IMG/VR virus record: IMGVR_UViG_3300010392_001000
Location: 1-31,793 of that record
Direction: 5' to 3' (one strand)
From: a virus
Length of the DNA stretch: 31,793 nucleotides
The position numbers and the translations under genes were made by a program. The notes under the pieces were generated by a model. The model saw only the letters and a program-made list of their open reading frames with translations. It did no database searches and was not told the DNA's origin. Below, piece by piece: positions 6,011 through 18,570 of the stretch (positions within the stretch are counted from its first letter, which is position 1; each line of letters opens with the position of its first letter).

Positions 6011-6054
6011 TCAGCAAAGGTACAGCCAGCCAAATCTCATAAGTAAAGGTTCTC
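6011..6054 (+). repeat. Imperfect ~44-bp direct repeat, copy 1
   Basis: This segment matches 12668-12710 in the same orientation at about 38 of 44 positions with one 1-nt gap. The conserved core includes TCATAAGTAAAGG and GCCAAAT. The two copies bracket the RadC, DUF262 and restriction-modification genes. Confidence 0.7.
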
Positions 6055-6760: not shown

Positions 6761-6994
6761 GGTCATTGCAGGGCTTTGTGATTAGAATTATTGTTTAGAT
6801 TTGCTGTAATTTAAAGACCATCATGAAATGAGAACATTTTTGAAATCCATATTGATAGAACTTCTCTTGCAAATTTAATTGGCACTTTAGGTCATTATTA
6901 TGGCTCTATTGTGTACGTTTTCTGTGTATTATGAAATTTCACACAATGATAAATATAGCAACCATTATTATATTACAACGTTAGCAAAAATTGT
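6761..6994 (+). other. Intergenic stretch ending in an attC-like right half-site
   Basis: No gene is seen between the RadC terminator and the DUF262 gene. A 7-bp inverted repeat ATTGTGT/ACACAAT lies near 6908-6956. At 6976-6994 the sequence ACAACGTTAGCAAAA and following bases look like the right end (GTT core) of an attC-like site. Its 15 nt at 6980-6994 are the reverse complement of 8981-8995 with one mismatch, which makes it the left boundary of the DUF262 cassette. The matching left arm of a full upstream site was not found. Confidence 0.5.
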
Positions 6995-7008
6995 AAAATA
7001 GAATCAAT

Positions 7009-8979
7009 ATGCAAGCAAAAGAAACAAAACTTCAGGAAATAATTGAGGGAACAAAACAGTATGTAATTCCTCTATTTCAAAGAACATATAGTTGGACATC
7101 AAAAGAATGGACAATATTATGGGAGGATTTATTGGAGCTCAGTGAAATGGAAAATCCCCGGACTCATTTCATTGGTTCAATTGTGAATATGCCAACTGTT
7201 TCAGTGCCTGAAGGAGTTTCAAAGTTTATGCTTATTGATGGGCAACAAAGAATGACAACCATCTTAATTATTCTTATTCTTCTCAGAAATAAGGCTCAAG
7301 AAGAAGGAAATCAGGAGTTCTCAGAAGAAATAAACAATACTCTAATTGTGAATCCTTACAAAAAAGATTCTGACTACTACAAATTATTGCCTACCCAAGT
7401 TGATAGAGATTCTTTTTTACAGCTTGTAAATAATGATAACATTGAAAATAATTGTCAAATTTCATCAGCCTATAATTTCTTTGAACGGAAATACAGGCAA
7501 ACATCAATAAAAGGTGAAAAATTAAAGAAAGTAATTACGACATATTTTTCAGTTGTCAGTATTGTTCTTGATGCGGATGATAATCCATATTTAGTTTTTG
7601 AGAGCTTAAATGCAAAAGGAAGACCTTTAACTCAAGCTGATTTAATTCGTAACTATTTCTTCATGAGAATTCATGTAGACAATCAAGACAAGGTTTACAA
7701 GGAATTTTGGAAACCCATGCAAGACAAGCTTGCTGAAAACTTAACAGAATTTATTCGCCATTATTTAATGAAAGATGGTTCAATTATTAAACAATCAGAT
7801 GTCTATTATCAGCTTAAAGAAGCAGTAAATCAAGGAAACGTTATTAATCACTTGGCAGATTTATCCAGATATTCAGAGTATTACTATAAGCTTTTACATC
7901 CAGAAAACGAACCTAATCAAGAAATTAAAAAATATCTTAAAAGACTTAACAGGATTGAAGTTTCCACTGCTTATCCTCTTCTTTTAAACATTTATGAACA
8001 TTACTCAAAGAATGAAATAAGTTCACAGGAATTTGTGGATATTCTTAAAACAATAGAGAATTATTTAATAAGAAGATTTATTTGTGCTATTCCAACAAAC
8101 CAATTAAATAAAATTTTCCCGACAATTTACCCGCAATTATTAGCTAATCATATTGATGATCTTAGTTCAGGCTTAAAAATTGTATTGCAAAGCAAAGGAT
8201 ATCCAAAAGACTCCTCATTTAAATCAAGTTTAATGACATCTAAGCTTTACGGTGCAGCAGACAGAGCTATCAAGACCAAATTAATTCTTGAAACAATAGA
8301 ATTATCCTATAATCATAAAGAACAAGTTCCGTTTGAAAACCTATCCATTGAGCACATTATGCCTCAAACTTTATCAGAATACTGGCAAGAACATCTTGGT
8401 GATGACTGGCAGACAATCTATGATCTCTATCTTCATAGTTTGGGTAATCTGACATTAACCGCCTACAACTCGGAAATGTCAAACGCACCATACCCTGAGA
8501 AAAAAGAATTCTATCTTGATAGCCATTTGGAACTTAACAAGTATTTTGAAGAACAAGAATTTTGGAAGAGAAACGACATTGTAAATCGATCTGAATATTT
8601 AGCAGATAAAGCTTTAGAAGTATGGGGCTACTTTGGACAAGACGACTCTGATTTGAATATTATAGCTGATGTAACTGGAACGACACCTACTGGTCTTTGG
8701 ATAATGGGGCAATATTTTAAAGTTCAAAGCTGGAGAGACGTTTTTGAAGAAACGATGAATACTATCGCTGACTTAGAGCCTGAAAAGTTTGAAATAATTA
8801 TGAACCAGTTTCCGAATTACATCACGAGAGAAAAGAATAAATTAAGAGCAATAAGAGAATTACAAAACGGAACTTTCATTGAAGTAAATCTTTCTGCACA
8901 AGCTATTCAAAGATTATGTTACCAATCAATTGAAACTATAGAATTATCATCTGAAGATTGGAAAGTTGAGACATTGTAA
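7009..8979 (+). CDS. GmrSD-like DUF262/DUF1524 restriction protein
   Basis: This 656-residue protein has the two-domain architecture of GmrSD-type modification-dependent restriction enzymes. The N-terminal ParB-like DUF262 NTPase domain shows IPLFQRTYSW (residues 20-29) and DGQQRMTT (77-84). A DUF1524 His-Me/HNH nuclease follows, with IEH449IMPQ and HSLGN480LTLT and a downstream Asn (N487 or N492). A C-terminal ~90 residues (after ~570, with VQSWRDVFEE) form an extra domain I cannot name. Family members cut modified phage DNA, or in DUF262 relatives act in other anti-phage systems; its target is unknown. The gene is AT-rich and has only 29 nt between the cassette core and ATG, with no obvious promoter. 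Confidence 0.85.
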   Translation: MQAKETKLQEIIEGTKQYVIPLFQRTYSWTSKEWTILWEDLLELSEMENPRTHFIGSIVNMPTVSVPEGVSKFMLIDGQQRMTTILIILILLRNKAQEEGNQEFSEEINNTLIVNPYKKDSDYYKLLPTQVDRDSFLQLVNNDNIENNCQISSAYNFFERKYRQTSIKGEKLKKVITTYFSVVSIVLDADDNPYLVFESLNAKGRPLTQADLIRNYFFMRIHVDNQDKVYKEFWKPMQDKLAENLTEFIRHYLMKDGSIIKQSDVYYQLKEAVNQGNVINHLADLSRYSEYYYKLLHPENEPNQEIKKYLKRLNRIEVSTAYPLLLNIYEHYSKNEISSQEFVDILKTIENYLIRRFICAIPTNQLNKIFPTIYPQLLANHIDDLSSGLKIVLQSKGYPKDSSFKSSLMTSKLYGAADRAIKTKLILETIELSYNHKEQVPFENLSIEHIMPQTLSEYWQEHLGDDWQTIYDLYLHSLGNLTLTAYNSEMSNAPYPEKKEFYLDSHLELNKYFEEQEFWKRNDIVNRSEYLADKALEVWGYFGQDDSDLNIIADVTGTTPTGLWIMGQYFKVQSWRDVFEETMNTIADLEPEKFEIIMNQFPNYITREKNKLRAIRELQNGTFIEVNLSAQAIQRLCYQSIETIELSSEDWKVETL

Positions 8980-8980
8980 A

Positions 8981-9120
8981 ACAACTTTTGCTAACAGCGG
9001 CTCATAGTGCATGCCGCAAATAGTACTATTAAGAAAAATTATTTTAAGAATAAAAATGGTGCAAATCAAGAAAATAAAAAGTATAAATGCGGCACGCACC
9101 ATAGCCGCTAACCGTTAGTA
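8981..9120. other. attC-like hairpin site after the DUF262 gene
   Basis: Only 10 nt after the stop codon comes the R''-like GCTAAC (8990-8995). A left arm at 8996-9018 begins AGCGGCTCATAGTGC. A ~69-nt AT-rich loop and a right arm at 9088-9109 follow, then the R'-like CGTTAGTA (9113-9120). The arms pair over 22 positions with one extrahelical C and two A/C oppositions, which become T-G wobbles on the bottom strand. In addition 8981-8995 is the reverse complement of the cassette's own start (6980-6994). Length, R boxes, extrahelical base and bottom-strand preference match integron attC sites; no integrase is present, so function is inferred. Confidence 0.6.
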
Positions 9121-9147
9121 AGAATCAAAAGAAATTAGAAAACATAA

Positions 9148-12100
9148 ATGTCGTTATACCAATTATCAGTACTCAATAAACACCTTGCATCACAAGATGC
9201 AGAAGCCGTAAAAGCTGCTTACACCAAGTACGCAGCGTACTTCCTGAACAAGGAGATACAAGAAAACATTCGTAACGCAAAAGAAGAGCAGTTTCAGCAG
9301 AAATTTCTGATGGAATTGTTTGTGAATGTATTCGGATATGTTATGAATCCGGATGCTGGTTACAACCTAACCACCGAGCTCAAGAACATTAAGGACGCCA
9401 AGAAAACCGATGGCGCCATTCTGAAAGCTGATGGTTCAGCCATAGCCGTTATTGAACTGAAAGGCACCGACACCAAAGATCTTGATAAGGTAAACGACCA
9501 AGCGTTTAATTACAAGAACAATCAGCCCGATTGTGTGTATGTGATTACCAGCAACTTTGAAAAGCTGCGGTTCTTTATACACAATGCTGTAGAACACGAA
9601 GAGTTTAACCTTTTTACCCTTACAGAAAAACGCTTTGAGTTGCTTTGGCTCTTCTTGCAAAAAGACAACCTGCTGGGTGGCATACCTGCCAAGGTAAAGG
9701 AAGAAAGCCTGTTGCAAGAGGATAAGATTACCAAGGCCTTGTACGCAGACTATTCGGCTTTTAAGAACGACCTCTGGAACGATATGGTGCAGCGTAACTC
9801 GCAGCACGACCCGTTACTGCTATACAAGAAAAGCCAAAAGCTGCTAGACCGTTTCCTCTTCATCTTCTTTTCTGAAGACAAAGGACTGCTACCGCCAAAT
9901 AGCATCAGTCTTATTGTAGAGCAATGGACAAAGCTGAAAGAGCTGGACGAGTACAAACCGCTCTACGACCGATTTAAGAAGTACTTCGGGTATATGAATG
10001 ATGGCTACAAGGGAGCCAAGTACGAAATACACGCCTACAACGGTGGCTTGTTTAAAGTAGATGAATTGCTAGATGGACTGCTCATTGATGATGAACTGCT
10101 CAAAAAGTATTGCCTCAAGCTCACCAACTACGATTTTGCCGATGAGGTAGATACCAACATTCTCGGGCACATCTTTGAGCATAGCCTTAACGATATTGAG
10201 AATGTACGTGCCCGATTGGAAGGAGAAGAGGTTGATAAGAGCAAAACCAAGCGCAAGAAAGATGGCGTGTTCTACACGCCCAAGTACATTACCAAGTACA
10301 TAGTAGATAACACGGTTGGTAAACTGTGCGAAGAGAAAAAGGCCGAATTAGGCATAGATGAAGAAGAGTTTGCCAAAGACCGCAAAGGCAGACGAAAAGA
10401 CACTATTAAAAAGCTAGATGCCCAGCTGAAACAATATCGTGAATGGCTCTTGCAACTCACCATTTGCGACCCTGCCTGTGGTTCGGGTGCATTCTTAAAC
10501 CAAGCGTTGGAGTTTCTAATGGCAGAACACCGTTATGTAGATGAGTTGGAAGCGCAATTGTTTGAAGGCAGCATTGTGTTTCAAGATGTGGAGAACCACA
10601 TATTGGAGAACAACATTTATGGAGTAGATATAAACGAGGAAAGCGTAGAAATTGCCCGGCTCTCCTTATGGCTACGCACCGCACAAAAAGGCCGCAAGCT
10701 TACTTCGCTTAGCAGCAACATTAAATGTGGTAACAGTCTGATAGATGACCCCGAAGTGGTGGGTGATTTGGCCTTTAATTGGCAAGAGGAATTTCCAAAG
10801 GTGTTCGACCCTTCGGTAGGCTCTGGAGGAGGTTTTGATGTGGTGATTGGGAATCCGCCTTATGTAAGGCAGGAGTTGATTAAACAATATTCTGGATTTC
10901 TATTAGAAAACTATTCAGTCTTTTCTGGAAAAGCGGATTTGTACACCTATTTCTATGAGCTTGGTAAACGAATTTTAAAAGAGAACGGATACCTTTCATT
11001 TATCTCTTCAGGGAAGTTTTTCGCTGCTAGCTATGGTAAGCCTCTTGTTGAATTTTTAACAAGCAACACTACTATAGTTGAAGTAATTGATTTTGATGAT
11101 TTAGATGTGTTTGAAGGCATTTCAGCATATCCATTAATTCTTACGTTCAAGAATAGAGATCCAAATGCTGAAAGTGCTTTTTCATATTGCTTTGTTCCAG
11201 CACTGCGGTTTAATGCAATATCAGATGTTGTCAATAATCTGCCTTTGAAATTCATAAAGCTGAAAGGCTTTGTTCAGAATGATTACAATTTCATAAGTGA
11301 AGAAATAGCTTCCATTTTTGAAAAGATAAGGGAAGGCTCGTCTTCACTTTCTAAGCTTCACTGCCTACCATTAGTTGGCATAAAGACTGGGTACAATGAT
11401 GGTTTTCTGACCAATGAACCGCCTTCAGTATTCTGCAAACCTTACGTTTTCGGAAAGGATATTAAAAAGTATGCTCCGTTAAACTCTACATCAAACATTA
11501 TTTTTCCTTACCAAAAGGAAGAAGGAGAATACAAATTAGCACAAGAAGTAGAGTTAGACTCAAATCTTCGCGAATCAATTGAAACAAACCGAGAACGACT
11601 TGAGCGACGGGCAATAATAAAGGATGGAATACACAATGGAACTAAGATTTGGTATGAGTATCAGCAAATAAATCGAAAAGTTAATTTTGATTCGGAGTTT
11701 ATTGTTTATCCCAATGTTTCCTTGGGACCAAATTTCACATTGTGTAAAGGGAATGTTGTGGATATGACGGGGTTCATCATTCCGTCTAACGATAGGTATT
11801 TATTGGCCTTGCTAAATTCAAAATTGGTTGACTTCCAAATGAACAAGCTGGCAATTTCACGTAGAGGCGGTTATCTAGAGTACAAGATTCAATACTTGAC
11901 TCAACTTCCGATTAAGGTGGCTAGGGAGTCGGAAAAGATGCCATTCCACGTAAAAGTGGAGCATATAATTGAATCAACTGGTAATCTCAATTCCATTAAT
12001 CGAGGATTCATTCAACTCCTCCAATCCAAATTCAACCTACCGAAACCGAGCACGAAGTTGAAGCATTGGCCAAGTTTAGATTTCAAAGGCTTTTTGGCGG

Positions 12101-12294
12101 AGCTCAAAAAGGCCAAGGTACCAAAACTGAGTTTAGAAGATGAAGCCGAATGGATGGCCTACTTCAATAAAAAGAAAGAAGAAGCCAATGAGCTACAATC
12201 TGAGATTGATAGGATTGATAAACAAATAGACCAGATGGTTTATGAGCTTTATGGTTTAACAGAAGAAGAAATACAAATAGTTGAAAACAATTAA
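9148..12294 (+). CDS. One-polypeptide restriction-modification enzyme (type IIG/IIL-like, Eco57I-type methylase)
   Basis: This 1048-residue protein fuses nuclease, methyltransferase and specificity functions. The N-terminus has a PD-(D/E)XK-type site: D88, then E103-L-K105 in AVIELKG. The adenine methyltransferase has SAM motif I DPACGSGAF (441-449) and catalytic motif IV N569-P-P-Y572. The remainder (~575-950) is the target-recognition part, followed by a C-terminal helical region with LEDEAEWMAYF. It should methylate adenine in its recognition sequence and cut unmodified DNA. Base composition shifts to visibly AT-richer DNA from about 10870 to 12000, the recognition region, and back afterwards, suggesting domain exchange. 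It begins 34 nt after the upstream attC-like core. Confidence 0.85.
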   Translation: MSLYQLSVLNKHLASQDAEAVKAAYTKYAAYFLNKEIQENIRNAKEEQFQQKFLMELFVNVFGYVMNPDAGYNLTTELKNIKDAKKTDGAILKADGSAIAVIELKGTDTKDLDKVNDQAFNYKNNQPDCVYVITSNFEKLRFFIHNAVEHEEFNLFTLTEKRFELLWLFLQKDNLLGGIPAKVKEESLLQEDKITKALYADYSAFKNDLWNDMVQRNSQHDPLLLYKKSQKLLDRFLFIFFSEDKGLLPPNSISLIVEQWTKLKELDEYKPLYDRFKKYFGYMNDGYKGAKYEIHAYNGGLFKVDELLDGLLIDDELLKKYCLKLTNYDFADEVDTNILGHIFEHSLNDIENVRARLEGEEVDKSKTKRKKDGVFYTPKYITKYIVDNTVGKLCEEKKAELGIDEEEFAKDRKGRRKDTIKKLDAQLKQYREWLLQLTICDPACGSGAFLNQALEFLMAEHRYVDELEAQLFEGSIVFQDVENHILENNIYGVDINEESVEIARLSLWLRTAQKGRKLTSLSSNIKCGNSLIDDPEVVGDLAFNWQEEFPKVFDPSVGSGGGFDVVIGNPPYVRQELIKQYSGFLLENYSVFSGKADLYTYFYELGKRILKENGYLSFISSGKFFAASYGKPLVEFLTSNTTIVEVIDFDDLDVFEGISAYPLILTFKNRDPNAESAFSYCFVPALRFNAISDVVNNLPLKFIKLKGFVQNDYNFISEEIASIFEKIREGSSSLSKLHCLPLVGIKTGYNDGFLTNEPPSVFCKPYVFGKDIKKYAPLNSTSNIIFPYQKEEGEYKLAQEVELDSNLRESIETNRERLERRAIIKDGIHNGTKIWYEYQQINRKVNFDSEFIVYPNVSLGPNFTLCKGNVVDMTGFIIPSNDRYLLALLNSKLVDFQMNKLAISRRGGYLEYKIQYLTQLPIKVARESEKMPFHVKVEHIIESTGNLNSINRGFIQLLQSKFNLPKPSTKLKHWPSLDFKGFLAELKKAKVPKLSLEDEAEWMAYFNKKKEEANELQSEIDRIDKQIDQMVYELYGLTEEEIQIVENN

Positions 12295-12306
12295 AACGGC
12301 ATACGT

Positions 12307-12389
12307 TCGAGTAGCCCGTCCCGCCAGTAAAAACTGACGGGAAGAGGCTCTCGCACCACCGTAGCTAAGGGTCTTGTATTCAATGGTTC
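12307..12389 (-). ncRNA. Remnant of a group II intron 3' end (domains V-VI), antisense
   Basis: Read on the minus strand, 12389 to 12356 is a 34-nt element starting GAACC and ending CTACGGTGG, which can fold like domain V (with wobble pairs). It continues TGCGAGAGCC, then a domain VI-like hairpin at 12320-12341 (9-bp stem with one mismatch, AAAA loop in plus orientation), then GGGCTACTCGA near 12307. The series TACGGTGGTG.GAGAG...CTACTCGA is the typical 3' end of bacterial group II introns. No reverse transcriptase or upstream domains remain, so it is a 5'-truncated remnant. Minus-strand homology may extend to about 12480. Confidence 0.5.
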
Positions 12390-12528
12390 GTCCGTTCAGA
12401 AGTTCTATCGCTGGACAGAAAAGTGCCACGCAATCCGCCTTACATCACATACGCTCCACCGTTAACTTACCTCACATATTATTCTCTTCCCAAAATTCGT
12501 CCTTATTTGTTACCTACTCCTGATTTTT
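12390..12528. other. Non-coding stretch, unexplained
   Basis: No gene, strong hairpin or promoter is evident. The first ~90 bases may be further degraded group II intron sequence on the minus strand. The rest is AT-rich spacer. Confidence 0.4.
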
Positions 12529-12616
12529 TGATGAATTGATGAGCTTTTGATGAGCTTTTGATGAGGGCTATCATCCTCATTCATTATATGTTACAAAGCA
12601 GCTCATCAATTCATCA
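12529..12616. repeat. Long inverted repeat with perfect 17-bp arms
   Basis: TGATGAATTGATGAGCT (12529-12545) is the exact reverse complement of 12600-12616. Inside are two more direct copies of TTTGATGAG and an inner pairing GATGAGG/CCTCATT. Runs of T follow (CACTTTTTTCATCTTTTTT). It could end transcripts entering from the restriction-modification gene, or be a mobile-element end; arms this long with an 88-nt total span are unusual for a terminator. Confidence 0.75.
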
Positions 12617-12667
12617 CTTTTTTCATCTTTTTTATCTAATACCTAATACGCCGGTTACTCAATTTAA

Positions 12668-12710
12668 TCAGCAAAGTTAAGCCCGCCAAATATCATAAGT
12701 AAAGGCTCGC
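12668..12710 (+). repeat. Imperfect ~44-bp direct repeat, copy 2
   Basis: Second copy of the element at 6011-6054, same orientation, sharing TCAGCAAAG, GCCAAAT and TCATAAGTAAAGG. Confidence 0.7.
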
Positions 12711-12931
12711 GTGCCCAACAGTAGAAATATTTGGAAAAGTTGTTGGAAGAACATATTTTTACATTTTATTGGATTGGGTATTGGTAAGCTACAGGATAAT
12801 TTCGGTTAGCAAATCGAAAAGGTACACAATACATGCCGATTCGGTGGGGTATATGTACCTTTACGTCAAGGATAATGAAAAAATATATGTACCAGGTAAA
12901 TATAGCCAAACGTTGGGGGCAAGGCCAATAA
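12711..12931 (+). other. Leader stretch of the PIN gene with attC-like right half-site
   Basis: No gene is seen. A 9-bp inverted repeat AAAGGTACA/TGTACCTTT lies at 12818-12826 and 12854-12862, and TATATGTACC is directly repeated at 12850 and 12884. At 12901-12920 the bases TATAGCCAAACGTTGGGGGC match the right end of the site downstream of the PIN gene (ATAGCCCAAACGTTG). GTTGGGGGC (12912-12920) is the exact reverse complement of 14954-14962. A possible left box GCCCAAC lies at 12713-12719, but the arms between are poorly paired. Confidence 0.5.
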
Positions 12932-14944
12932 ATGAAAATTAAAACCAAGCATATTATGAATGAAAAAACTTTAATGACATATTCTTTATTAAATCATTTA
13001 AAGGAAACAGGTTTCAATAATTATAGTGGTATCGCTGAATTGTTTTTCCCAATAGTTAAAAAAGCTATTCATGAGTTTGCAAAGAATTATGGTAGCAGCA
13101 ATATCAAAGGCAAGAGCATTTCTGAGATTCAAGACCAAGTAAAAGATTTTTTCGAATTAGAAATACCCTTGAGTGTTTTAGATTTCATTCTTTCTCAAAT
13201 TAGTAAAGAAATCTCCGATGATAATGTGTTTGCGTATTACCAAGACAAGAGTTTTATAATAAATAGCTTCATCTTTAACGATATAGATGATAGAATTGAT
13301 GATGAGCAAAACAATATTCAACATTTAAAAAATGACTTTAAAGAATTCTGTTCAGGATCAGGGTATGAATTTGAATTTAATGAGCTTATCGACTTTATTT
13401 GCTCACAGAAAATTGAGTTGCTTGCAGAACAAAAAAAAGAAGAATTGGATGTAAGTTTCCATATCCCAAAATACCTCTCTCAAAAATTTCTTGACAAAAA
13501 AATATTCAAAATAATAAGTGATATTTATTTAGGAAGTTTGATTTCAACATATTTTGAATTTAAAATTGACTCACCCGTTGCCAATACAGAGTTACTAATT
13601 GACACTAATTTTTTCATTAGTCTTATTGACTTAAACTCTCATGAAGCATACCTTACTTGCAATCAACTGCTCGATATATGTAATAGACTCGGATTTAGAT
13701 TCTCTATTTTATATAGCACAATTGACCAAATAAAGTATTTACTAAATTCAAGAATTCAAGATTTTAAAAATAAAGATATTGGTTTAACAAAAGAAACAGA
13801 TATTTTTGGTGCTTGCATTCGAAGGAATCTTGATAAATCTCAGCTGGAAAGAATAAAAGATCAAGTTGATACTACTCTCCGAAAGTTTAATATTGACATT
13901 ATACATGAAGCAAGGATTTTAGACCTTATTTCGAAAGCAAAGAAAAGCAAGAAGTATAAGGAATTACTAGAATTAAGGAATTTTCATGTAGAAAGTGCCT
14001 TAAATGATACAATCGCATATTTCTATGTGATGAAGAAACGAGGAGGAAATGTTCAAGAATTTTCTGATGTTAAATGTTGGTTCCTAAATAATACTTTTCA
14101 CCGTGATTATTATATTGGATTAGGATACAAATTACATGAACGATTTAAAATTAGTGCAAACGAACTATTATCCCTTTTATGGCTTGCAAACCCAAGTCAA
14201 GAGAACATTGATTTAAGCATCCTTTCAAAAGGTGGGATAGCATCGTATATTGCAAAATACAAACAAACCAAAGTACCAAGCGTCAATACCATCAAAGACA
14301 TAAATGCAAGAGCTAAGAGGGTTTTACAACAAGGTTTGATTACCGAAAAAGATGTTTTCGCAATTAGTATCCGAATGGCCGAAGGCCAATTAACTAATGG
14401 AGATGCATCTGCACTTTCTGAACTGCCGGATGAAGAGTTTATTCAATCTGTAAAAAACCTAACTCAAAAAGATGAGGAGATACTTAACAAAGTTAGTGAA
14501 CAGACAATTCTGATTCAACAACAAAATGAAATATTAGAAGAGCTACGTCAACAAAATATTGACAATCAATACACAATTGCTAAGGAAAAGTTTCTCACAT
14601 CTAGAGATAAATATGTTGACAATAAATTGCCCCAAGCAATATTAAGTATGAATAAGATAGCTTTGGGCTATTTACTTTTTGTATTTGCAATTATAACCGT
14701 TTGGCTCTTAAACTATTTTGAATTTCAATTGCTCGGGATAGAACTAAGTGGATTTATTTCATTCATACTTTTCATTGTTGCACTGTTTATCAGATTCGTT
14801 GAGCATAAATCGGTCTGGAAATGTCTGCAATTTACCTTCATCAAGAATTATAGAAATATCAAATTGGTAGAAATCCGTGAGGAATTTGAAAAGGAATACG
14901 ACTTAGCTAATAAGAAGCCTACTAGGGAAATGTTCATTAAGTAA
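12932..14944 (+). CDS. PIN-domain protein with C-terminal two-helix membrane anchor
   Basis: 670 residues from ATG 12932; an in-frame ATG at 12956 (MNEKTL) is an alternative. The N-terminal ~215 residues are helical and unrecognised. A PIN-type nuclease core follows: LLID224TN226, then E354 and D359 in ESALNDTIAY, and D379 in FSDVKCW, which fit the acidic metal-binding set. Residues ~490-545 form a coiled coil (QTILIQQQNEILEELRQQN). Two membrane helices (~577-596 and ~603-624) precede a charged cytoplasmic tail. PIN domains cleave RNA or structured nucleic acid. A membrane-tethered PIN enzyme next to restriction genes suggests an abortive-type defence effector, but this is inference. The gene is AT-rich. 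Confidence 0.65.
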   Translation: MKIKTKHIMNEKTLMTYSLLNHLKETGFNNYSGIAELFFPIVKKAIHEFAKNYGSSNIKGKSISEIQDQVKDFFELEIPLSVLDFILSQISKEISDDNVFAYYQDKSFIINSFIFNDIDDRIDDEQNNIQHLKNDFKEFCSGSGYEFEFNELIDFICSQKIELLAEQKKEELDVSFHIPKYLSQKFLDKKIFKIISDIYLGSLISTYFEFKIDSPVANTELLIDTNFFISLIDLNSHEAYLTCNQLLDICNRLGFRFSILYSTIDQIKYLLNSRIQDFKNKDIGLTKETDIFGACIRRNLDKSQLERIKDQVDTTLRKFNIDIIHEARILDLISKAKKSKKYKELLELRNFHVESALNDTIAYFYVMKKRGGNVQEFSDVKCWFLNNTFHRDYYIGLGYKLHERFKISANELLSLLWLANPSQENIDLSILSKGGIASYIAKYKQTKVPSVNTIKDINARAKRVLQQGLITEKDVFAISIRMAEGQLTNGDASALSELPDEEFIQSVKNLTQKDEEILNKVSEQTILIQQQNEILEELRQQNIDNQYTIAKEKFLTSRDKYVDNKLPQAILSMNKIALGYLLFVFAIITVWLLNYFEFQLLGIELSGFISFILFIVALFIRFVEHKSVWKCLQFTFIKNYRNIKLVEIREEFEKEYDLANKKPTREMFIK

Positions 14945-14953
14945 TAAAGCCCA

Positions 14954-15086
14954 GCCCCCAACAAAGGCTATACCCAATAAGGGTTTTAGTAGCAACCTGA
15001 TAGCAAATTCAAGAAATGAAAATCTGTAATAAATTAAAACATCAGCGCTTCGAAATCCCTTACTGGGCATAGCCCAAACGTTGCCT
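14954..15086. other. attC-like hairpin site after the PIN gene
   Basis: Nine nt after the stop codon comes the R''-like GCCCCCAAC (14954-14962), the exact reverse complement of the cassette start at 12912-12920. The left arm GGCTATACCCAATAAGGG (14966-14983) pairs with CCCTTACTGGGCATAGCC (15057-15074) at 16 of 18 positions across a 73-nt loop. The two mismatches are A/C on the top strand and T-G wobbles on the bottom strand. The right end is AAACGTTGCCT. The 133-bp length is close to that of the site after the DUF262 gene. Confidence 0.6.
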
Positions 15087-15112
15087 CTAGTATCCTTTTC
15101 TAAATAACTGAC

Positions 15113-16943: not shown

Positions 16944-17227
16944 AAAACGCCAATACCATATCCCTCTATTCTGCCATTGACCAGATGCGGAAGATCAGCG
17001 AAAGAAAAGGCCATTTCTCTTTTTCCTTTATGTCCTACTCCCGCTCAGATGGAAGCTCCCATGGCATTGTACAGGTGGATAAGGCCCGGCTGCGGAGCGG
17101 CAATCCGGATGAGGCCAATTATGGTGACTATCTCTTAAACTTTGTTGATCTCAATACGGGGAAAGCATTCCAGTGCTGGAAACCCTGCCTGATGATTTTT
17201 GATAGCAATAAAATATTCCTGAAATGA
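16940..17227 (+). CDS. Small phage protein, function unknown
   Basis: 95 residues starting at TTG 16940, overlapping the previous stop codon by 4 nt. It ends 4 nt into the portal gene (ATGA-type overlap), so it is translationally coupled on both sides. The sequence has a basic N-terminal helix (SAIDQMRKISERKG), then strands with FSFSFMSYSRSDGSSHG and a C-terminal FQCWKPCLMIFD. I do not recognise it. A head or portal-assembly accessory is plausible from position only. Confidence 0.65.
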   Translation: MKNANTISLYSAIDQMRKISERKGHFSFSFMSYSRSDGSSHGIVQVDKARLRSGNPDEANYGDYLLNFVDLNTGKAFQCWKPCLMIFDSNKIFLK

Positions 17228-18570
17228 TTACAAGGAACGGAAACACAGGCCTTGTGAGCATGGCTGATAACTCAGCATACTCATTCAATATTGCCAGCGC
17301 AGATTCTGTTACTGATTTCGAATTTTTCAATTCAAATCAACAACAGACCTGGGAGGATGATCCCCAGGTGGTAGGCGGCTTTAAAATTGTTCCCTTTGGT
17401 GAAATGAATAACCTTCCGGTTGTCCTGCGCAATATCATCGAGGACAATAACCTGGCTGCCGGCATCTTTAAGCGACAACGGGGATTGCTGTGGGGCCAGG
17501 GCCCGGAACTTTACAGGGAAGAATTTACAGGGAATGATAAACAAAGAGTGTGGGTTGAGGATAACCAGGTTAAAGACTGGTTAAAGTCATGGGATTACGA
17601 ATCCTACCTCCTTCACCTTATCGTTGATTATTTTCATTCTGAATGCACCTTTTCAAAAATTGTCCGCAACCGTGGCCCCCGGATCGGCGGCACAGGGATG
17701 ATAAAGCTTCTGGAATATGTTTCCGTTTCACGGGCAAGGTTGGAATGGCCACAGGACAGGATAAAACCAAAACAGGTAGTTGTCGGTGATTTCGACGATC
17801 AGCAGTACAACCATTACCAGGCTTATCCCATATTCAATGAATCCGATCCTTACCAATACCCTGTGTCAATCATGTTTTCGAACATGGCTTCGTTTGCAAG
17901 ACGCTTTTATGGAGTGCCGGCCTATTATGGTGCCCTGAACTGGATCAGGAAGGCTTCTTCAATACCAAAGATATTGCAGTCGCTTACTGACAACTCATTG
18001 AACATTAAGTGGCATATCATTTCCCCTGCAGCTTACTGGGAAGCAAAACAGGAAAAGATCAGGGAGAACTGCACCCTCAAAGGCATCGAATACAACGACC
18101 GGATGTTGGAGGACCTCAAGGATGAAATTTTTAAAAAACTTGCCAAGGTATTGGCCGGGGAAACCAATGTTGGCAAGTTTTTTACTTCCGAAAAAGTCAT
18201 GAATGAGTTTGGCCAAATGGAAAATTGGGAAATCCAACCCATCGATCAAAAGGTGAAGGACTTTATTGAGAGCCAGATAAAAGTCGCCGATAAAGCGGAT
18301 AGCGCTACAACATCCGGCTTGGGCTTACACCCTGCCCTATCCAATATTATGGTGGATGGAAAGCTTGCCTCCGGATCAGAACAGCTGTATGCCCTCAAAT
18401 TGTACCTGGCCACTGAAATTGATATCCCTGAGAAAATAATTACAAAGGCCCTCAATACTGCCATTGCCATCAACTGGCCTTACAAAAACCTCAAAATCGG
18501 TTTTTATCATAATGTGGTCAAAACAGAAGATTCGGTAACGAGTAACGAAAGGATGAAAAATGCTGTTTAA
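17224..18570 (+). CDS. Phage portal protein
   Basis: 448 residues. The early segment (GGFKIVPFGEMNNLPVVL, then NNLAAGIFKRQRGLLWGQG) and the middle beta/helical region match portal proteins of Bacteroidota phages. The long helical stretch RMLEDLKDEIFKKLAKVLAG would be the stem/clip region. The C-terminal GSEQLYALKLYLATEIDIP resembles the portal wing end. The portal forms the dodecameric ring through which the terminase pumps DNA. It is slightly short for the family and normally lies next to the large terminase, whereas here about 12 kb separate them. It overlaps the next gene by 11 nt. Confidence 0.75.
   Translation: MITRNGNTGLVSMADNSAYSFNIASADSVTDFEFFNSNQQQTWEDDPQVVGGFKIVPFGEMNNLPVVLRNIIEDNNLAAGIFKRQRGLLWGQGPELYREEFTGNDKQRVWVEDNQVKDWLKSWDYESYLLHLIVDYFHSECTFSKIVRNRGPRIGGTGMIKLLEYVSVSRARLEWPQDRIKPKQVVVGDFDDQQYNHYQAYPIFNESDPYQYPVSIMFSNMASFARRFYGVPAYYGALNWIRKASSIPKILQSLTDNSLNIKWHIISPAAYWEAKQEKIRENCTLKGIEYNDRMLEDLKDEIFKKLAKVLAGETNVGKFFTSEKVMNEFGQMENWEIQPIDQKVKDFIESQIKVADKADSATTSGLGLHPALSNIMVDGKLASGSEQLYALKLYLATEIDIPEKIITKALNTAIAINWPYKNLKIGFYHNVVKTEDSVTSNERMKNAV

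What the first reader, a model, noticed from the sequence alone, without database searches (positions are those of the whole stretch)
12307..12389. Antisense group II intron remnant where the restriction gene's attC-like site should be
The restriction-modification cassette starts with a GTTAGTAAG core, but no reverse complement follows its stop. Instead, 12 nt after the stop lies what looks like the domain V/VI end of a group II intron on the minus strand. Known: group IIC-attC introns insert into the bottom strand of attC sites, so they lie antisense to cassettes. The remnant could have destroyed the site. The class of this intron cannot be told from what remains.
Basis: partly seen in the sequence, partly recalled or inferred. 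Interest (0 to 1): 0.6.

Follow-up and report, generated by a model that had tools for sequence, protein, structure and literature searches.

The report
Dead group IIC-attC intron in phage cassette
Just behind a restriction-modification gene in a phage-carried string of integron-type gene cassettes lies the broken tail of a mobile ribozyme (a group IIC intron of the kind that jumps into cassette recombination sites), together with half of the recombination site it probably ruined.

Summary
Minus strand 12389-12306 is the complete domain V/VI end of a group II intron. A covariance model built from 37 Bacteroidota introns, window excluded, matches it over all 84 positions at 75 bits, E 8e-17. 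A full-length Flammeovirga intron matches at 82% over 82 nt. Rfam misses it because domain V is degenerate: the catalytic CGC is now CAU.

It can be for the relatives: their reverse transcriptase matches GsI-IIC best (338 bits, against 121 for LtrA), and their empty sites read TTGT|T, the published group IIC-attC target. Of 18 relatives with both ends, 11 sit in attC-type hairpins.

Nothing of the intron upstream of domain V remains. Instead 12414-12466 resembles the right half of a Bacteroidota attC and ends at a core, GTTAACTTACC. The likeliest history is an insertion into the restriction-modification cassette's attC, then a deletion that removed most of the intron and the attC left arm. Weak point: the gene-side flank (GGCATAC) does not match the cassette's own start (GTTAGTAAG).

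It is a new, dead member of a known kind in an unusual place: a cassette array of restriction genes in a Bacteroidota-type phage.

The parts
12306..12389 (-). Group IIC intron 3' end: domain V (about 12389-12355, catalytic CGC changed to CAU), domain VI hairpin (about 12352-12308), end CTACTCGAA (relatives CTACTCGAT)
   Evidence: Model R1: 75 bits, 84/84 positions; nhmmer/blastn to full-length introns; alignment of 37 relatives
12295..12305 (+). Gene-side flank AAAACGGCATA(C): where the attC R'' box should be; same flank AAAACGGCATA next to another Bacteroidota intron end (L228)
   Evidence: 3' exon consensus TTR in 67 of 83 relatives; does not match the expected CTTACTAAC
12414..12471 (+). 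Probable right half of an attC ending in R' core GTTAACTTACC (12461-12471); left arm missing
   Evidence: 77% over 53 nt (12414-12466) to the right half of a complete attC in Bacteroidota genome G357 (L232), flush at the core; no left arm found
9148..12294 (+). Type IIG restriction enzyme-methyltransferase, gene of the affected cassette
   Evidence: PADLOC PDLC03609 1081 bits; Pfam Eco57I
9114..9122 (+). Core GTTAGTAAG, start of the restriction-modification cassette and R' of the preceding attC
8986..9122 (+). Complete attC-type site of the GmrSD cassette (R'' TTTTGCTAAC matches cassette start GTTAGCAAAA at 6980-6989)
   Evidence: Arm match 17, 0 of 500 shuffles; blind scan
14954..15087 (+). 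Complete attC-type site of the 12932-14944 cassette (R'' GCCCCCAAC matches cassette start GTTGGGGGC at 12912-12920)
   Evidence: Arm match 16, 0 of 500 shuffles; blind scan

Best explanation
A retrotransposing group IIC intron of the attC-targeting kind inserted, antisense to the gene, into the bottom strand of the attC site that ended the type IIG restriction-modification cassette. It recognised the hairpin plus TTGT|T. The copy then died: its catalytic domain V mutated, and a deletion removed everything from upstream of domain V (domains I-IV and the reverse transcriptase) through the left arm of the attC. The 84-nt 3' end and the right half of the attC remain. The restriction-modification cassette should therefore no longer be excisable by an integron integrase as a single unit, and it is fixed in this phage-borne array. 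Shown: identity of the remnant, class and target of its relatives, orientation, and absence of a complete attC here. Inferred: that the insertion target was this cassette's attC, the deletion, and the loss of mobility.
For: 75-bit full-length model hit. 82% identity over 82 nt to full-length Flammeovirga pacifica introns. Relatives have both ends (GTGYGCCC..CTACTCGAY), 5' exons ending in TTGT or similar, and 3' exons starting with T then R. Joined flanks of relatives form attC hairpins: 11 of 18 sites with p<0.01. Their protein is of the IIC type. A second remnant in Flammeovirga kamogawensis plasmid p2 sits 13 nt after a gene stop, with flank GTAGGTAA matching its cassette start GTTACCTGC. 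The right half of an attC at 12414-12471 resembles L232. Published target and orientation of IIC-attC introns: PMC7923331.
Against: The gene-side flank (GGCATAC) is not complementary to the cassette start GTTAGTAAG, whereas two of two intact neighbouring cassettes match over 9-10 nt. The last intron base is A, not the usual T or C. The L232 match alone is weak (E 0.003 per genome, 395 genomes searched, with about 30 chance-level hits elsewhere); its weight comes from its position and register. No copy of this phage locus without the intron was found, so there is no direct empty-site comparison.
Confidence: 0.82

Rival explanations
1. The intron inserted after the gene's own terminator-like sequence, not into an attC. 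The attC half came from another attC-borne copy of the intron by recombination, as in the published proposal that IIC-attC introns help form new cassettes. The remnant would be the scar of joining a non-cassette gene to an attC.
For: Flank GGCATAC does not match the cassette start. None of 12 type IIG homologues in Bacteroidota genomes has an attC behind it. Hypothesis of Leon and Roy, described in PMC7923331. Some relatives here sit after T runs (L194, L160).
Against: The gene has a normal cassette start at 9114 directly behind an intact attC, which the model does not require. No terminator hairpin is evident before the junction. Flank mismatch may be decay. The homologues are only 34-77% identical.
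Confidence: 0.12
2. Not an intron: a chance hairpin or an ordinary terminator between two genes.
For: Rfam gives no hit; the hairpin is strong and stands right after a stop.
Against: Full-length covariance and sequence match, including the unpaired conserved segments GGTGGTG.GAGAG and CTACTCGA. No run of T follows.
Confidence: 0.01
3. A shortened but still mobile non-autonomous element, moved in trans by a full intron, rather than a dead remnant.
For: 263-nt shortened copies with both ends intact occur at two sites 1.1 kb apart in a Saprospiraceae genome, so internally deleted copies exist in this family.
Against: The window copy lacks any recognisable 5' end (no GTGYGCCC; one search shows no match upstream of domain V) and has a broken domain V (CGC to CAU, and an invariant G changed to A).
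Confidence: 0.03

Closest known systems
Group IIC-attC introns (S.ma.I2 lineage; Quiroga, Roy and Centron 2008; Leon and Roy 2009)
   Same: Antisense to the cassette gene, at the R'' side of the attC bottom strand, TTGT|T target in relatives, IIC-type protein
   Different: Bacteroidota lineage, phage-borne array; this copy is reduced to 84 nt with a broken domain V
UHB.F1 truncated group IIC-attC intron, Tanatar-5 soda lake (PMC7923331)
   Same: 5'-truncated IIC-attC copy lying antisense in a cassette array
   Different: Still keeps part of the protein gene; metagenome contig, not a phage
Integrons and attC clusters in phage genomes (PMC9892861), including Polaribacter phage P12002L with methyltransferase cassettes
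   Same: attC cluster without integrase in a phage, carrying restriction-modification type genes, also a Bacteroidota host
   Different: The paper does not mention introns
Flammeovirga kamogawensis plasmid p2 remnant (NZ_CP076131.1 29507-29570)
   Same: Same 3' end, same strand, 13 nt after a gene stop, in a cassette
   Different: More decayed domain V (37.6 bits), but its flank matches its own cassette start

Membership tests
Group II introns | Domain V and domain VI at the 3' end, covarying stems, AY-type end | tested here: met
   75 bits over 84/84 positions; stems covary in relatives. In this copy the catalytic triad and last base are changed.
Group II introns | Domains I-IV and 5' end GTGYG | tested here: not met
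   No match upstream of domain V: a remnant, not a functional member
Group IIC (class C) | IIC-type reverse transcriptase | tested here: met
   Tested on relatives only: GsI-IIC RT 338 bits against LtrA 121 and the IIB-type maturase 6me0 105. The window copy has no protein.
Group IIC-attC | Insertion at TTGT|T in the bottom strand of an attC hairpin | tested here: inconclusive
   Met in relatives. In the window only the orientation, position and probable right half are preserved; the 5' junction is lost.
Group IIC-attC | Antisense to the cassette gene | tested here: met
   Gene on plus strand to 12294, remnant on minus strand
Group IIC-attC | Protein groups with the attC lineage in a tree | not tested
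   No protein in the window; no tree built for relatives
Integron gene cassettes / CALIN | Two or more attC hairpins with R''/R' cores | tested here: met
   Two complete sites, none in shuffles
Integron gene cassettes / CALIN | Recombination by an integron integrase | not testable with these tools
   Needs an attC x attI assay

The most novel reading that the evidence does not exclude
The scar records cassette birth: a group IIC-attC intron joined a normally non-cassette type IIG restriction gene to half of an attC in a phage-borne array, as has been proposed for such introns.
Probability: 0.1. Interest if true: 0.65.

Novelty: new member of a known kind. Interest (0 to 1): 0.36.

Why it matters
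It adds a phage-borne Bacteroidota case to the interplay of integron cassettes and retroelements, and it shows how such an element can freeze a restriction-modification cassette by destroying its recombination site. The scan behind it uncovered at least 84 related intron 3' ends, nearly all from Bacteroidota contigs, many in attC-type sites. The passages of the papers read here do not mention that group. The family model R1 finds decayed copies that Rfam misses.

Tried and rejected
Rfam for domain V: negative, too degenerate. Exact search for the degenerate domain V in viral contigs: none. Relatives of the restriction gene or of the 17224-18570 phage protein among viral contigs: none, so no empty site. 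The repeat AAATNTCATAAGTAAAGG (6017-6052 and 12673-12708): six viral matches are unrelated, apparently coding sequence. Left arm for the site ending at 12912: candidates at 12784 and 12704 scored at chance, so an ORF-less cassette between 12461 and 12912 is not claimed. A conserved loop motif AAGTGNCACGNAATCNGCC for the attC half: 24 viral matches, about what chance gives, and only G357 among 296 genomes. The motif AAACGGCATANAACA as a general R'' box: none in 198 genomes.

Full report
What is there. The window is a whole IMG/VR virus record without a host genome. Phage-type genes flank a run of genes between 6980 and 15087: GmrSD (7009-8979), a type IIG restriction enzyme-methyltransferase (9148-12294) and an unidentified protein (12932-14944). 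A blind scan for hairpin arms next to a CGTTR core finds exactly two complete attC-type sites in 31.8 kb, 8986-9122 and 14954-15087, and none in 10 block shuffles. Their arm matches are 17 and 16, against shuffle means of 5.7 and 5.4. In both cases R'' is the perfect complement of the start of the same cassette (GTTAGCAAAA/TTTTGCTAAC; GTTGGGGGC/GCCCCCAAC), as expected of integron cassettes. No integrase was seen, so this is an attC cluster without integrase.

The remnant. Eighty-eight viral stretches carry the same kind of 3' end, GAACCGCCGTATAC..GTACGGTGGTGTGAGAGG..CTACTCGATT. A covariance model from 37 of them, window excluded, hits the window at 75 bits over all 84 positions, minus strand 12389-12306. 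That scan pattern was designed from the window and one Flammeovirga remnant, so the set is tilted toward similar domain VI hairpins; domain V, apart from its last bases, was not part of the pattern. Compared with relatives, domain V has lost the CGC triad (now CAU) and an invariant G, and the last base is A. Rfam does not see it although it sees intact relatives.

Class and target of relatives. Introns with both ends run from GTGYGCCC to CTACTCGAY. D1-D4 Rfam models hit many of them. The protein in L202 is closest to GsI-IIC (338 bits) and far from LtrA (121) and the IIB-type maturase 6me0 (105). Their 3' exons begin T then R in 67 of 83 cases, and the 5' exons end in TGT. Joining the flanks gives TTGT|T, the target published for IIC-attC introns, which lie antisense to cassette genes (PMC7923331). 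Of 18 non-identical sites with both ends, 11 form attC-type arms at p<0.01; some others follow T runs, as IIC introns also do.

What happened here. Upstream of domain V nothing of the intron is left. From 12414 to 12466 the sequence resembles the right half of a complete attC in Bacteroidota genome G357, in register and ending at the core. The left arm is nowhere near. I infer insertion into an attC followed by a deletion that took domains I-IV and the left arm. A second remnant, in Flammeovirga kamogawensis plasmid p2, stands at the same distance from its gene and has a flank that matches its own cassette start in 7 of 8 bases.

Weak points. The gene-side flank in the window, AAAACGGCATAC, does not match the cassette start GTTAGTAAG. 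It may be decayed or may come from another site. Another Bacteroidota intron end has the same flank AAAACGGCATA (L228), but this motif is not a general R'' box. The G357 match is not significant by its E-value alone. No empty version of this locus was found.

Novelty. Truncated IIC-attC introns in cassette arrays are known (PMC7923331), and so are attC clusters with methyltransferases in phages, including a Bacteroidota phage (PMC9892861). The combination and the Bacteroidota intron family were not found in the papers searched, which are open-access only. Hence: new member of a known kind, modest interest.

Noticed in passing
6980-15087: Phage-borne run of integron-type cassettes carrying defence genes (GmrSD, type IIG restriction-modification, an unidentified 670-aa protein) with two complete attC-type sites and no integrase.
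   Followed up: partly
L158 1131-1393 and 2225-2487: Two almost identical 263-nt group IIC introns with both ends and domain V intact but no protein gene, 1.1 kb apart in a Saprospiraceae contig, next to similar GC-rich hairpins; other copies in that genome also have internal deletions. Possible non-autonomous elements.
   Followed up: partly
6017-6052 and 12673-12708: A 36-nt near repeat (83%; about 47 nt at 86% by blastn) in the two non-coding stretches of the array, AAGTTAAGCCCGCCAAATATCATAAGTAAAGG; no relatives found.
   Followed up: partly
12529-12616: Perfect 17-bp inverted repeat TGATGAATTGATGAGCT with 54 nt between the arms, in a stretch without a gene; purpose unknown.
   Followed up: no
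12461-12912: Gene-less stretch between two attC-type cores; no left arm could be found for the site ending at 12912, so it may be a broken ORF-less cassette.
   Followed up: partly
L091 4000-4063: Decayed intron 3' end of the same family in Flammeovirga kamogawensis plasmid p2, 13 nt after a cassette gene.
   Followed up: yes
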